Shown: piece after piece, positions 4,858 to 54,022 of the stretch
Numbering within the stretch: the first letter of the stretch is position 1
Layout of the letters: each line of letters opens with the position of its first letter
Assembly (NCBI GenBank): GCA_018389105.1
Contig: JACATO010001575.1
Location: 1 to 64,000 of the forward strand
Reading direction: 5' to 3'
Origin: Nautilus pompilius
Lineage: Eukaryota > Mollusca > Cephalopoda > Nautilida > Nautilidae
Length of the DNA: 64,000 nt
Program-made: the position numbers and the translations under genes
Notes under the pieces: model-generated
What the model saw: the letters and a program-made list of their open reading frames with translations, nothing else
What the model was told of the DNA's origin: nothing
The model's database searches: none

Positions 4858-5505
4858 TAAACACGAAAATCAGTTTTCCTTCACAATCGCGTAGCAACCT
4901 CAAAAGTTAGAAGCGCTCTAGAGTTAAGAAAGAAAACTGACACTCGAACCAACCCACTTTTCGTCTATTTTTGACATAGTTTATCGTCAAACATTCACAT
5001 GTGTACGGGTGCTTGTGTTTTAGGTTCCGGCTCTACGTCGGTTTGCACCGCACTAGATAAGAAAGAGTAAATACCGTGTAACAATGGTCTCTTGATTTCC
5101 TACAGGCACGATTTTAAAAAAAGGGGGGCTCCCGCAGACATCTGCTAAAGTTTTGAATGAAAAATAGATTTGAAAAAGGTCAAAAATTAGATTGGAAGTA
5201 GAGAAGAGCAATTGTTTGAGTTTTCAGCGAGACGTACCGCGTCGGAAGCTGACACTTGATACTTTCAGCCGTCTTGGCAGAATCGCGTACGAGCCTACAT
5301 CGTGTGAAATGAAGTGGAAGGAATTGTCGCTATCTGGTTCTCGTGGAATGACTGAGGACAAAATTCCTGGTACTGATCCCGGAAAACTTGTGTGTGTGGA
5401 CGGACGGTAATATGTACAAGACGAAGAGAAAGACAAAAATGGCGCGCGTCCTCATGACCCAGACGTCATCTTTGCCGGAAAGAAGAAAAAGAGAGAGAGA
5501 GAGAG
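4858..5505. other. Non-coding, nothing recognised
   Basis: No supported gene. It ends in a short GA tract that leads into the second CRE-containing array. Confidence 0.4.
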
Positions 5506-5675
5506 AACGTCAGTCAATAGACAGGGAGACGGATGACGTCAGTACAGAGAGAGATGACGTCATTACAGAGAGAGAGACATAAAACGTCAGTCAATAGACA
5601 GGGAGACGGATGACGTCAGTACAGAGAGAGAGATGACGTCATTACAGAGAGAGAGATAGAGAGAGAGAGAGATCG
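5506..5675. repeat. Second CRE-bearing GA minisatellite, 77-bp unit twice
   Basis: A unit of about 77 bp is present twice (5,506-5,582 and 5,583-5,659). Each copy starts AACGTCAGTCAATAGACAGG and holds two TGACGTCA octamers, at 5,534 and 5,555, then 5,611 and 5,634. The octamers are followed alternately by GTACAGAG and TTACAGAG. The tail is plain (GA)n. It shares its building blocks with the array at 235-450. Confidence 0.85.
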
Positions 5676-8031: not shown

Positions 8032-8331
8032 CGAACCCCGTGTATCTCAGCACTGGCTGTGGATGAAGAGGCAGGGTTGTCGGTCTCACAATCTCATGCA
8101 GGTGCTTCGACGAACAACCAAGGCAGTCCCTGCCAGCCGTGATCTTACCCTGCATTTGTCTTTACATCGCCAATGCCATAGCGAACCCCGTGTATCTCAG
8201 CACTGGCTGTGGATGAAGAGGCAGGGTTGTCGGTCTCACAATCTCATGCAGGTGCTTCGACGAACAACCAAGGCAGTCCCTGCCAGCCGTGATCTTACCC
8301 TGCATTTGTCTTTACATCGCCAATGCCATAG
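8032..8331. repeat. Exact 150-bp tandem duplication
   Basis: Positions 8,032-8,181 are repeated without a visible mismatch at 8,182-8,331. The trinucleotide CGA stands at both ends of each copy (8,032, 8,182, 8,332), consistent with duplication at short microhomology. Because 150 is a multiple of three, an open frame through the region (7,925-8,428) carries a 50-residue peptide twice. I do not recognise that peptide, and the block is more likely part of an unidentified repeat than a gene. Confidence 0.9.
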
Positions 8332-8334
8332 CGA

Positions 8335-47115: not shown

Positions 47116-48930
47116 ACGTTCCCCGCCCGCCGAGGCTGTTTGCTCCAGTTTGGAGAGGTTAGCGCCGTTGTAGATACTGGCGTAAGTGTATTTACAGCCC
47201 AGGCAGAAATGCCAGAAGGTTAGACCGATACTAGGAAGTGTATTTTAAAAATTACTTCTGTTTCTGTTTTTGCGGCTAAATCTTAAATAGATCCTATTAT
47301 AAGTAGACTAATTTTGCTTTCTTTCCAAATCTTTGCTAAGACTTTTGTATTCGTTTCTTTGGTCGTCACCCAGTCGTCCATGAAGCATTTCTTTTAAAAA
47401 CTGAACTAAGATGCTATTGTTTTTATTTATTTGGTTGTAAGAAAGCACTTTGCAAAGTTAACATTGTTGTTTATATGTTTTCTAAATCGTAAAGATTAAT
47501 AATTATTACTGTTTTACATCTTTGTAAAACACGTATCCGTTGTCTTATCAAATCATTTTTTTTAAAAATTTAACAATTTAATTGCGTTTAGTTTATACAA
47601 GAAGACTGGAGCCATTATGGCTTCTATGTCCTCCCAGAGGAAAAAGAAACAGACGCTTAATGTTCAGCTTGTTTATCCTTCACTCATTATAGTATTTTGC
47701 AGCATTGGCTGGAAACTATCGTTTAATCACAGAACTCCAAAATTGCTGTGATTTAAAGACTTGTCATAGTTTGACGAATGTTCTGTTTTGTCGTCTTTGT
47801 TTAGCTGCTGCCAAGGTAGTGGCGAGTTTATTAAAGCGGACCGGTAACCAGACATGTAACGGGAAAGTCTACCAACAATTATGGGTTTAGTGGAAAAGAT
47901 GTGTTGAGTTCTTACGCAACTAATGAATTCCAGATCTAGTGTGGTTCATAAAACACGCCCAGTTTAAAAATAAGTAAATGGATGAATTACCGCATGTGGG
48001 AATTAATAACGTGGAGTACAATTTACTGGAATATTTCCAAGTTATACATTCTAGCAAGAAAGAACAGGTGTCAATCACAGATGTATAATTAGGGTTTCGT
48101 CGGTATAACATCCGAGCTCCTGAGCCAGTAACAAACAGCAGGATACGGATACGTCTACATGTGATTGAGTCTCTTTTTTATGACATGGAGCTATAACTAA
48201 AAGTATGGATCCGTCGGCCGCTGGATGTAAAGTAGAAAGTTGTTTTGTTTGTTTCTGAAGGGTAAGCCGCGATTTCCTGCTTAGGAACTTGCTTAGGGAT
48301 CCTTCTGAATATTTTGCAGATTTCAAGAGGAACTCTAGAAAGTAGATGCTTTGTCTATTAGTAATAACTGAATTGATTGATAAACCTACAATTTGCAGAT
48401 CTTCCTGTGTCGTCATCTTCAGGGTTCACTCGAAGAAAGGACCATGTTGGGCGATCGATTTTCTTTTCTGGACCGCACGGACGGCCTGAGCTGGTTTTGA
48501 GTTCGTTGGTTGCCAACTCTTTTGAAGTACTTAGTGGCTGACTCCAAGCGGTTGTAGTGTTAGTAATCCTAGAGATCAGAGCACCTGGTGATCCTTCAGC
48601 GAAGAAGGAAACCTTAGTACCCGGAAAAAAGCTAGGGGAAACCAAACACCTCGCAGTACAATCGGTATCCGACCTATGAAGAATTGATTTGCCAGGTTTA
48701 CTGTAAAATCTCGCCTTTTCTGTATTTCTAAAATCTTTACGTCGGGAAAAAGTCCGTGCTAGTATCGCTTTAAGACTAGTTTTAAAAAAGGCCTTCTTGT
48801 TAGTTTGTTACTGTTTTAGTCATTATTCTTGCCACCATTTGGAACGAGCTACTTATTTACAGGAGATTTCTCAAAACACTGAAGTCTTACCAACACGGTC
48901 GAGTTAAAAGCAACCACAACAAGCCGGCCC
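47116..48930. other. Non-coding, no recognised gene
   Basis: Two overlapping minus-strand frames (48,075-48,416 and 48,358-48,645) are moderately long but match no family I know. A frame at 47,705-47,890 begins after an acceptor-like TTTTGCAG at about 47,702 and shows no domain. Nothing here is called a gene. Confidence 0.35.
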
Positions 48931-49215
48931 CGGGAGGGGACAGGTGGTAGCGGGTTAGCTCCGTGAGGGGACCGTTGCTCCTGTACCGGGTTCGATCCCA
49001 GGTTGGGGTCGGAGGAGAGTTGTCGCTGATGATCGCCATAGCGTGAAACAGCTGTACGACATCTCCTTGGTGCCCGACTTGAGAGAGACCTCCCGGGTCC
49101 TTGGGGCCCCCGGTGTCGGGGGACCGAGCCGCTACATCCCTCAGTTACGAGGAGGACTCGGCATTTGGACGTCCAACTCGCTTAACAACAAGGACGAAAT
49201 ATACCTGGATAATCT
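48931..49215 (+). mobile_element. tRNA-derived SINE carrying a hammerhead ribozyme
   Basis: The tRNA-like head has an A box (TAGCGGGTTAGCTC, from 48,948) and a perfect pol III B box (GGGTTCGATCCC, 48,988-48,999). A hammerhead ribozyme fold begins 15 nt after the B box (49,014-49,066). The remainder is GC-rich, with a short hairpin-prone segment (GGGCCCCCGGTGTCGGGGGACC-like, about 49,099-49,122), and fades into AT-rich sequence near 49,215. No poly-A tail or clear target duplication was found. Its body differs from that of the other SINEs in the window, so it is a separate family. Confidence 0.65.
49014..49066 (+). ncRNA. Type I hammerhead ribozyme-like motif
   Basis: All three conserved core elements are present in order. 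The core is CTGATGA (49,026-49,032), a short stem II with CGC/GCG pairing and a CATA loop (49,034-49,043), and GAAA (49,045-49,048). Stem III is minimal: A-U and C-G pairs closed by an AGCT loop (49,048-49,055). The cleavage triplet is GTA, giving predicted self-cleavage between 49,056 and 49,057. Stem I pairs TGTCG (49,021-49,025) with CGACA (49,057-49,061) and, beyond a two-base bulge, GGAGA (49,014-49,018) with TCTCC (49,062-49,066). One flaw is visible: the first stem II pair (49,033 with 49,044) is T-T instead of a purine-pyrimidine pair, which may weaken cleavage. Minimal stem III type I hammerheads are known from animal retroelements. Confidence 0.75.
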
Positions 49216-52900: not shown

Positions 52901-53585
52901 ACACTCAGCAATCAAAAGGCAGCGATTTCCAGACCAGCTGAGGCCAACTCTATAATCCAAACAACAGTAAAGTCCGCAAGTTAATGTGATCGAGCTTCAA
53001 GAGAGTTCTCTTCAGGATAGGGGGGGATCTCCGAAACCTAGGTTTATTGGTTAGTAAGTGCTAATACGTTAGTGGGGAATTCCCGAACTGATCCTTTACT
53101 TCTTATAGAATGGTTTAATGGATGACATTGAGAGGAGCAAAAAATATTTCTGTACGTAAATAAAGTCTGTATAGACAGCAGTGATTTCGTGCGTTCTAGC
53201 TCAGCCTGGATTCTTCTTCGAGATTTCTGTTCTCACACACACACTTGTCAAGGTCAGCGAGCAACCGGTACATATAAATAAGGCCCAGAGCTTCTTGTAC
53301 AAAACAGGAAGTCAGATTACAAAAGTGAACCACTTAGATCATTCCACTAAAGCCCTTTCAAACGGCGTTGATATAAAAACAAAAAAAGAAACCGCCTTGT
53401 AGCGCCGTATTTTCATGTAAATGTTTAACATATAAGAAATATCTAATACTTAGCTCGGGAGCTAACAACTCGGCACCTATTCATTACCGACAGGTGGCAC
53501 ATTCTATAAGAATTTTTTTTGTTGTTGCATTCTGTTGAGAGTCACTACGTATTCGATTTATTGCCGTATATATTTCTATTTTCAG
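49985..53585 (+). other. Phase 1 intron of the TNF ligand gene
   Basis: This GT-AG intron of 3,601 bp has a GTAAGT donor and a TTTCTATTTTCAG acceptor. It contains a (TA)n/GTATA tract near 50,268-50,302 and nothing else recognised. A 136-codon open frame at 51,003-51,413 inside it has no domain, and the flanking exons join in frame without it. Confidence 0.8.
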
Positions 53586-54022
53586 CGCCAGGTCGACAAT
53601 TTCCCATAAGTAACTGGATTTACAATAAAGATTTGGCGTTTACCAATCACGTTTCATATCGTCACGGGCGCATTGTGGTTCCTTCTACTGGACTTTACTA
53701 CGTGTACAGCCAGGTGTCGTTCCTAGAGGTGCTAGACTTCAACAACAAAGATGTGACTAAGCAGAGCACTACGGACTCGCCTAGCTTGTCCCACTATGTT
53801 TATAGATACAACATCATTTACCCGTACGGAGGGGAAGAAAATTTGGTGCAAAACTCAATTACGAAATGCTGGGGACAGTACAAATCGTTTGGGGAATACA
53901 CCAGTTATTTAGGGGCTGCCTTCCACCTTCGACAGGGAGACGAAATCTTCGTTAAAGTTTCGAATCTGACGCTCTTGGCTGTTAACCCTAAATCCAACTA
54001 CTTTGGTTTGTTTAAGCTGTAA
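53586..54022 (+). CDS. TNF superfamily ligand, terminal exon (TNF homology domain, TRAIL-like)
   Basis: The last coding exon gives 145 residues and TAA at 54,020. It encodes nearly the whole beta-sandwich domain of a trimeric TNF ligand, a type II membrane or shed cytokine that binds death or TNF receptors. In order: WIYNKDLAFTNHVSYRHG (A' to B strands), RIVVPSTGLYYVYSQVSF (B' and C strands, the family's best-conserved block), HYVYRYN (D/E region), ITKCWGQY, YTSYLGAAFHLRQGDEIFV (F and G strands) and YFGLFKL (terminal H strand). A sequon, NLT, follows the G strand. There is one cysteine, in KCW (codon 53,867-53,869), placed as in vertebrate TRAIL, where it binds zinc at the trimer axis; the Cys pair of TNF-alpha is absent. 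With the previous exon, the domain is about 162 residues, a usual length. The open frame extends upstream to 53,519 only through intron sequence; the acceptor and phase fix the start at 53,586. Confidence 0.95.

What the first reader, a model, noticed from the sequence alone, without database searches (positions are those of the whole stretch)
49014..49066. Hammerhead ribozyme fused directly behind a tRNA-like SINE head
All hammerhead core elements are present with a minimal stem III and a paired stem I, starting 15 nt after a perfect B box. A pol III transcript of this SINE would carry its own self-cleaving ribozyme, so the RNA could trim its 3' part or circularise, as described for retrozymes. 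Hammerheads are known in Penelope-like elements, retrozymes and the schistosome SINE-like repeat; placement immediately after a tRNA head here may mark an undescribed SINE family. One flaw is a T-T mismatch at the first stem II pair.
Basis: partly seen in the sequence, partly recalled or inferred. Interest (0 to 1): 0.78.

Follow-up and report, generated by a model that had tools for sequence, protein, structure and literature searches.

The report
SINE families carrying a hammerhead-like domain
A short jumping element in an animal genome carries, right behind its promoter-like head, a motif that looks like a self-cutting RNA and is shared with sister element families; it is probably inherited from a real ribozyme but is slightly damaged here, and nothing seen so far shows that it still cuts.

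Summary
At 49,014-49,066 the unpaired hammerhead (HHR) core letters are present with three helices, 15 nt behind a perfect B box; a descriptor written after seeing the site expects under 0.001 such sites per window. It lies in a dispersed SINE family (F1) of a 728-Mb genome: 608 places match its HHR 30-mer within one mismatch; 19 of 26 parsed copies have flanking duplications of 12 nt or more, against 7% in crossed controls. The T-T at the first stem II pair is the family state (59 and 60 of 60), not a flaw of this copy. Two sister SINE families carry the module in the same place: F3 with G10.1 facing C or U, F2 mostly with a broken core (CTGCTGA in 19 of 30 loci). Stems I and II change in step between families, but a plain hairpin shares those pairs and is the predicted fold. 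Rfam HH9 finds sister copies at best at E 8.7e-5, none over gathering. None of 100 copies read (60 F1, 40 F3) begins at the cleavage site. Best reading: an inherited hammerhead domain in ordinary retroposed SINEs, weak or dimer-dependent in F1. tRNA-bearing SINE-like elements with an HHR are already known in schistosomes.

The parts
48922..49184 (+). F1 SINE copy (starts AGCCGGCC, ends CGCTTA before a short (AAC)n); lacks 14 nt of the 40-row majority sequence at 49,133/49,134
48916..48923 (+). 5' copy of a putative target-site duplication ACAACAAG (8 nt, low complexity, overlaps the element start by 2 nt; weak on its own)
   Evidence: crossed controls
49185..49192 (+). 3' copy of the putative target-site duplication ACAACAAG
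48945..48954 (+). A-box-like TGGTAGCGGG (one deviation from the consensus, which is recalled); F2 has TGGCCTAACGGG and F3 TGGCGTAGTGGG
   Evidence: by eye
48989..48998 (+). B box GGTTCGATCC
49014..49066 (+). Hammerhead-like domain, type I topology
49021..49025 (+). Stem I inner 5' strand TGTCG (outer GGAGA at 49,014-49,018, bulge GT at 49,019-49,020)
49026..49032 (+). Core CTGATGA (positions 3-9)
49033..49044 (+). Stem II TCGC-CATA-GCGT; first pair T-T, next three paired
49045..49055 (+). GAAA core followed by CAGCTGT; ACAGCTGT is a palindrome (minimal stem III, or pairing between two RNAs)
49056..49057 (+). Predicted cleavage site A17 / C1.1
   Evidence: sequence; not a 5' end in any of 100 copies read
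49057..49066 (+). Stem I 3' strand CGACATCTCC

Best explanation
The site is one copy of a pol III-type SINE family (F1) whose central domain descends from a type I hammerhead ribozyme. The same module (promoter-like head, B box, GGGGTCGGAGG, hammerhead) sits in at least two further SINE families (F2, F3) that differ in stem sequences and, for F1, in the 3' body. The ancestor probably had a canonical hammerhead with a very short palindromic stem III (ACAGCUGU). Some F3 copies are canonical; F1 has fixed U-U in place of the 10.1-11.1 pair; most F2 copies read have lost core letter A6. The elements multiply as ordinary SINEs: full-length RNA is copied by a LINE-type machinery. In a lone RNA the core is predicted to be buried by GCUG/CAGC pairing, so cis-cleavage should be weak; two RNAs pairing through ACAGCUGU could form double hammerheads. 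Shown: the families, copy numbers, flanking duplications, shared module, in-step changes in stems I and II, absence of 5' ends at the site in the copies read. Inferred: hammerhead ancestry, pol III transcription, weak or dimer-dependent activity, the LINE helper.
For: Motif expected under 0.001 times per window (descriptor post hoc). 43 matches to the element, 40 of 1155 first-look candidates scored; HHR 30-mer at 608 places within 1 mismatch, reversed control 0. Flanking duplications: 25 of 26 parsed copies have 7 nt or more (crossed controls 40%), 19 of 26 have 12 or more (crossed 7%); 14 of 40 rows not parsed. Pattern CTGATGAN{8,16}GAAACAGCTGTACAGC: 65 exact matches, control 0; 31 of 65 have four standard stem II pairs, 14 of these with G10.1-C11.1 (near-duplicates included). 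Sister copies show a B box before the module. On 24 hand-picked rows the HHR pairs form in 89.8% of cells, 4 pairs change on both sides, stem II pair 2 is G-C, A-U or C-G by family, 0 of 500 shuffles reach the covariation score, slid controls pair 17-43%; 16 rows: 90.9%. On all extractable rows without picking: F1 86.1% (38 rows) and 87.3% (55), F2 86.6% (23), F3 89.5% (13, pattern-chosen) and 78.8% (12, chosen by 3' probe). Rfam HH9 hits 11 of 12 sister loci and 1 of 2 F1 loci given, E 8.7e-5 to 2.8 (14 of the 20 loci). The 19 core letters agree between typed family consensuses, stems and loops in 15-26 of 32.
Against: No hit reaches an Rfam gathering score; the RF00163 search also rang below cut-off in 11 of 14 control genomes, so that hit alone means nothing. 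T-T at 10.1/11.1 is fixed in F1. CTGATGA in only 4 of 30 F2 loci read. In F3 copies chosen by the 3' probe only 2 of 12 have G-C at 10.1/11.1, 7 have G-U. RNAalifold prefers a plain hairpin pairing core letters with the stem III loop; its 6 doubly changed pairs include every doubly changed HHR pair but 14-49, so covariation hardly separates the two models, and the four hairpin-only pairs form in 90-100% of cells. Folds with the core free are 4.7-8.3 kcal/mol worse, the HHR fold of the 53-mer 9.2 worse. The number of pairs changed on both sides is not exceptional (44 of 500 shuffles; 296 of 500). The region from B box to HHR is also conserved (29-33 of 36). 0 of 100 copies read begin at the cleavage site. 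Only three lineages; 15 of 24 rows of A2 come from a pattern that fixes core and stem III.
Confidence: 0.65

Rival explanations
1. The domain is a conserved SINE hairpin (perhaps for protein binding or RNA stability) in which GCUG pairs with CAGC and stem II caps the hairpin; resemblance to the hammerhead core is chance.
For: RNAalifold and single-strand folds prefer it; the 53-mer folds better than shuffles, z -3.2; the helices that change in step are shared by both models; its four own pairs form in 90-100% of cells; F1 and most F2 copies break a hammerhead rule but keep the hairpin.
Against: It does not obviously need the GAAA, G16.2, U16.1 and A17 letters, which agree between families; some F3 copies meet all hammerhead core rules including G10.1-C11.1; Rfam HH9 at E 8.7e-5. 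Energy models give no credit to hammerhead core contacts (general knowledge).
Confidence: 0.25
2. An active retrozyme-like element: the RNA cuts itself, is circularised, and spreads through circular or cleaved RNA.
For: Type I hammerhead in a short non-autonomous retroelement, as in animal retrozymes (PMC7229834 abstract and passages).
Against: Insertions bounded by head and tail with flanking duplications, not by the cleavage site; 0 of 100 starts at the site; one same-strand pair within 1 kb among the 100 listed of 608 places (C69, 347 nt apart).
Confidence: 0.05
3. Pure chance motif in an unrelated repeat, without a conserved structure.
For: Below gathering; T-T mismatch.
Against: Sister families with a changed stem II that still pairs.
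Confidence: 0.05

Closest known systems
Sm-alpha / Sj-alpha SINE-like elements of schistosomes
   Same: Short, highly repeated, SINE-like, with tRNA-related sequence and a type I hammerhead (passages of PMC2770079, PMC4918200, PMC8490949)
   Different: Not compared by sequence (no schistosome sequence fetched). Its hammerhead is active (passage of PMC6155905; title of Ferbeyre 1998 in a reference list); here there is no activity evidence. The position of the hammerhead relative to the tRNA in Sm-alpha was not checked.
Animal (non-LTR) retrozymes
   Same: Type I hammerhead in non-autonomous elements (PMC7229834 abstract and passages); a review says they could be regarded as a novel SINE family (PMC7761336 passages)
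   Different: Those give circular RNA (same passages); here insertions are mostly single as far as listed, with a pol III-type head and a microsatellite tail
Minimal hammerheads of Penelope-like elements and Terminons
   Same: Helix III minimal or missing, dimer action suggested (PMC7761336 passages; Lunse 2017 seen as a title in its reference list)
   Different: Reverse-transcriptase or pseudo-LTR context was not looked for around the SINE copies
Hammerhead_HH9 (Rfam RF02275)
   Same: Best-scoring Rfam family for the copies, with a similar CCAAA loop II in sister copies
   Different: All scores below gathering 52; that HH9 is an intronic vertebrate ribozyme is recalled
SINEs with shared central domains (CORE, V, Deu, Ceph)
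   Same: A domain shared between SINE families behind a pol III head (PMC3272025 passages)

Membership tests
SINE | Short, non-coding, dispersed, many copies | tested here: met
   274 nt without tail; 395 and 608 places by two 30-mer probes, controls 0
SINE | Target-site duplications and simple-repeat tail | tested here: met
   25 of 26 parsed F1 rows with 7-19 nt repeats near the 5' end (23 distinct 5' flanks), crossed controls 40% at 7 nt and 7% at 12 nt; 14 of 40 rows not parsed; (AAC)n tail
SINE | Internal pol III promoter | tested here: inconclusive
   Perfect B box; A box deviates by one in F1; transcription not testable
tRNA-derived SINE | Head recognisable as tRNA | tested here: not met
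   ARAGORN 0 in window and in 19 sister loci; no Rfam tRNA hit at E up to 10
Hammerhead ribozyme type I | Core CUGANGA...GAAA, U16.1, H17, three helices open at stem I | tested here: met
   Window copy; F1 copies:
Hammerhead ribozyme type I | Paired 10.1-11.1 | tested here: not met
   U-U in F1; G-C or G-U in most sister copies counted
Hammerhead ribozyme type I | Rfam covariance model over gathering | tested here: not met
Hammerhead ribozyme type I | Covariation in helices not shared with a rival fold | tested here: inconclusive
   Doubly changed pairs are nearly all shared with the hairpin
Hammerhead ribozyme type I | Self-cleavage | not testable with these tools
   Needs bench work
Retrozyme (animal) | Tandem units bounded by the hammerhead | tested here: not met
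   (100 of 608 places listed)
Retrozyme (animal) | Circular RNA | not testable with these tools
   No RNA data
Sm-alpha | Sequence homology | not tested
   No schistosome sequence on hand

The most novel reading that the evidence does not exclude
A superfamily of SINEs in which a hammerhead is the shared central domain and acts mainly between two RNAs: the palindromic stem III lets two SINE RNAs form a double hammerhead, so cutting rises with SINE RNA concentration and acts as a copy-number brake, while single RNAs stay whole and can be retroposed. The families read here in large numbers (F1, F2) each carry a lesion that would weaken the brake.
Probability: 0.15. Interest if true: 0.8.

Novelty: new variant of a known kind. 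Interest (0 to 1): 0.52.

Why it matters
If the ancestry holds, a hammerhead is a reusable SINE module outside schistosomes, shared by several families in one genome, and not tied to circular retrozymes. The families give natural variants (canonical F3 copies, U-U F1, A6-broken F2) that would test whether self-cleavage helps or hinders SINE spread.

Tried and rejected
Rejected: a defect of this copy only; retrozyme units; a motif without conserved structure. Rfam type I in the own genome gave one sub-threshold hit with 73 of 73,528 candidates scored, and rang below cut-off in 11 of 14 control genomes; it only served to open the sister families. The genome-wide fraction of F2 copies with CTGATGA could not be counted, so 4 of 30 loci read is given. 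No relatives in other animals could be searched: no animal collection is held. Host identity was left at animal: a TNF-family exon and COX1 pseudogenes reading TGA as sense. That the COX1 piece looks lophotrochozoan is recalled and untested.

Selection effects: loci are the best-scoring copies; the 60 F1 and 40 F3 copies tested for 5' ends were taken from the listed places (100 listed of 395; 100 of 100) and are near the probe sequence. F3 loci were chosen by a pattern that fixes core and stem III. A1 and A2 rows were hand-picked: A2 uses 15 of the 20 loci (L257, L269, L271, L272, L273 left out) and 1 of the 12 segments extracted from the 3'-probe loci; all extractable rows were therefore counted. 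In one search F2 was entered as CTGATGA although 19 of 30 loci read have CTGCTGA; with that letter the core would agree in 18 of 19. Some copies look duplicated with their flanks (L010/L013, L016/L018, L017/L047, L256/L257, L272/L273), so counts are not all independent.

Full report
What is there. The window lies in contig C1501 of a 727.6-Mb assembly. Sequence at 49,014-49,066 has the unpaired hammerhead core letters, a five-pair inner stem I with a five-pair outer extension across a GU bulge, a stem II of three pairs plus T-T at its first pair, and a two-pair stem III inside the palindrome ACAGCTGT. It starts 15 nt after a perfect B box. A relaxed descriptor, written after seeing the site, finds it once on the + strand and not on the - strand; 1.63 Gb of Markov sequence gives 0.0008 per window. 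Rfam gives nothing at gathering, no hammerhead at E up to 10 in a 1000-base search, and Hammerhead_HH9 at 14.9 bits, E 0.2, in a 101-base search.

The element. No second copy lies in the window, but the genome holds many: 43 matches, 40 of 1155 first-look candidates scored. Alignment of 40 rows shows an element sharply bounded from AGCCGGCCC to CGCTTA plus (AAC)n, 274 nt without tail. Of 40 rows 14 could not be parsed for both ends; of the 26 parsed, 25 have a repeat of 7-19 nt joining the flanks within 3 nt of the 5' end and 19 have 12 nt or more. Crossing the flanks of different copies gives 40% at 7 nt and 7% at 12 nt, so short CAG/AAC repeats are no proof but the long ones are good evidence. 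A 30-mer 3' of the hammerhead has 395 places and the hammerhead 30-mer 608 within one mismatch; reversed controls have none. This is retroposition of a whole SINE RNA, LINE-type by inference. The head has an A-box-like stretch and a B box, but no tRNA is called in it, nor in the sister loci tested, so 'tRNA-derived' is an inference.

The mismatch. In 60 copies chosen by the 3' probe, without regard to the hammerhead, each core letter is kept in 58-60 of 60, 10.1 is T in 59 and 11.1 is T in 60, one broken copy included. The family does not restore the pair.

Sister families. The one Rfam type I hit in the genome (27 bits, below gathering; 11 of 14 control genomes also ring below cut-off) lay in a different element, again behind a B box. 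Searching with it gave itself and 39 others at 78-89% identity, mostly over head plus hammerhead: family F2, stem II GAGC/GCTY, stem I GTGCTG/CAGCAC. Of 30 F2 loci read, 4 have CTGATGA (one is the query locus), 19 CTGCTGA, 7 other forms. A pattern that leaves stem II free gave 65 exact matches, reversed control 0. These revealed F3, with GGGC-CAAAA-GCCC or GTCC, in several loci behind a head with a good A box and B box. Of the 65, 13 are F1-like; 31 have four standard stem II pairs, 14 of these with G10.1-C11.1. Among 12 F3 segments found by a 3' probe instead, 10.1/11.1 is G-U in 7, G-C in 2.

Structure test. On 16 and 24 hand-picked rows the hammerhead pairs form in 90.9% and 89.8% of cells. 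In the larger set 4 pairs change on both sides; stem II pair 2 is G-C, A-U and C-G in different families; 0 of 500 shuffles reach the covariation score or the number of doubly changed cells; slid versions pair 17-43%. The number of doubly changed pairs alone is not exceptional (44 of 500; 296 of 500). All extractable rows give 79-90% by set. RNAalifold on the same 24 rows prefers a hairpin in which GCUG pairs with CAGC, using core letters C3-G5; it has 6 doubly changed pairs, and apart from pair 14-49 those of the hammerhead are among them. So covariation supports helices I and II, not the hammerhead over the hairpin. What favours the hammerhead is the complete set of core letters and the HH9 model: 11 of 12 sister loci and 1 of 2 F1 loci hit, best 30.1 bits, E 8.7e-5, five at E 0.034 or better (14 of the 20 loci were given); 4 of 14 further loci weakly; none reaches gathering. 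The 19 core letters agree in the typed family consensuses, while stems and loops agree in 15-26 of 32 and the stretch from the B box in 29-33 of 36.

Against activity. Folds with the core free are 4.7-8.3 kcal/mol worse than the free fold in five copies, the hammerhead fold of the 53-mer 9.2 worse. If cleaved RNA were retroposed, some copies should begin at C1.1. Of 60 F1 copies, by eye 59 run on through the site (54 by a strict pattern) and one breaks off in stem II. Of 40 F3 copies none begins at the site; the nearest starts are 4 nt either side, and seven begin within 4 nt of each other at the 3' strand of stem II, which I cannot explain. So no sign of retroposition of the cleaved RNA was seen.

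Interpretation. Three families with one module, the same core letters, helices changed in step, and a canonical form in some F3 copies favour descent from a real hammerhead. The fixed U-U in F1 and the lost A6 in most F2 copies read suggest that strong cis-cleavage is not needed for, or is selected against in, families that spread as whole RNAs. The palindrome would allow dimeric hammerheads; palindromic stem/loop III is described in a supplementary-figure legend of PMC3088659 and dimer action in PMC7761336. That this happens here is speculation.

Prior work. Searches of the held open-access library were seen as listings, several of them capped (20 of 40, 20 of 65, 10 of 738). In what I saw, hammerheads in SINE-like elements appear for schistosome Sm-alpha/Sj-alpha, and one review remarks that animal retrozymes could be regarded as a novel SINE family. 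Passages of PMC2770079 and PMC4918200 show that Sm-alpha combines tRNA-like sequence with a hammerhead. So the combination is known; apparently new are several sister families in one genome, insertions as ordinary SINEs, and family-wide lesions. Subscription papers and Repbase were not searchable, so these families may be listed elsewhere.

Noticed in passing
L337, L338, L341, L344, L346, L347, L368 (F3 copies): Seven of 40 F3 copies begin within 4 nt of each other at the 3' strand of stem II, 15-18 nt upstream of the predicted cut, with different flanks: a truncation hotspot inside the ribozyme-like domain.
   Followed up: partly
53510-54022: Open frame with a TNF-family domain (Pfam PF00229, E 1.1e-26).
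   Followed up: no
252-459 and 5490-5660: Tandem arrays whose units contain TGACGTCA.
   Followed up: no
8032-8334: Two identical 150-bp tandem copies, 100% matches.
   Followed up: no
G000, e.g. L374: 117 COX1 matches (96 of 180 candidates scored), most in pieces and reading TGA as sense: probably many nuclear copies of mitochondrial DNA.
   Followed up: no
G000:C2036 291 kb/323 kb and 1205 kb/1237 kb: F1 copies in two inverted pairs with nearly the same spacing (about 31.8 kb) and matching flanks: a large duplication or an assembly artefact.
   Followed up: no
F1 5' flanks: Many F1 insertions read lie beside CAG/AAC-type microsatellites: target preference or tail slippage.
   Followed up: no
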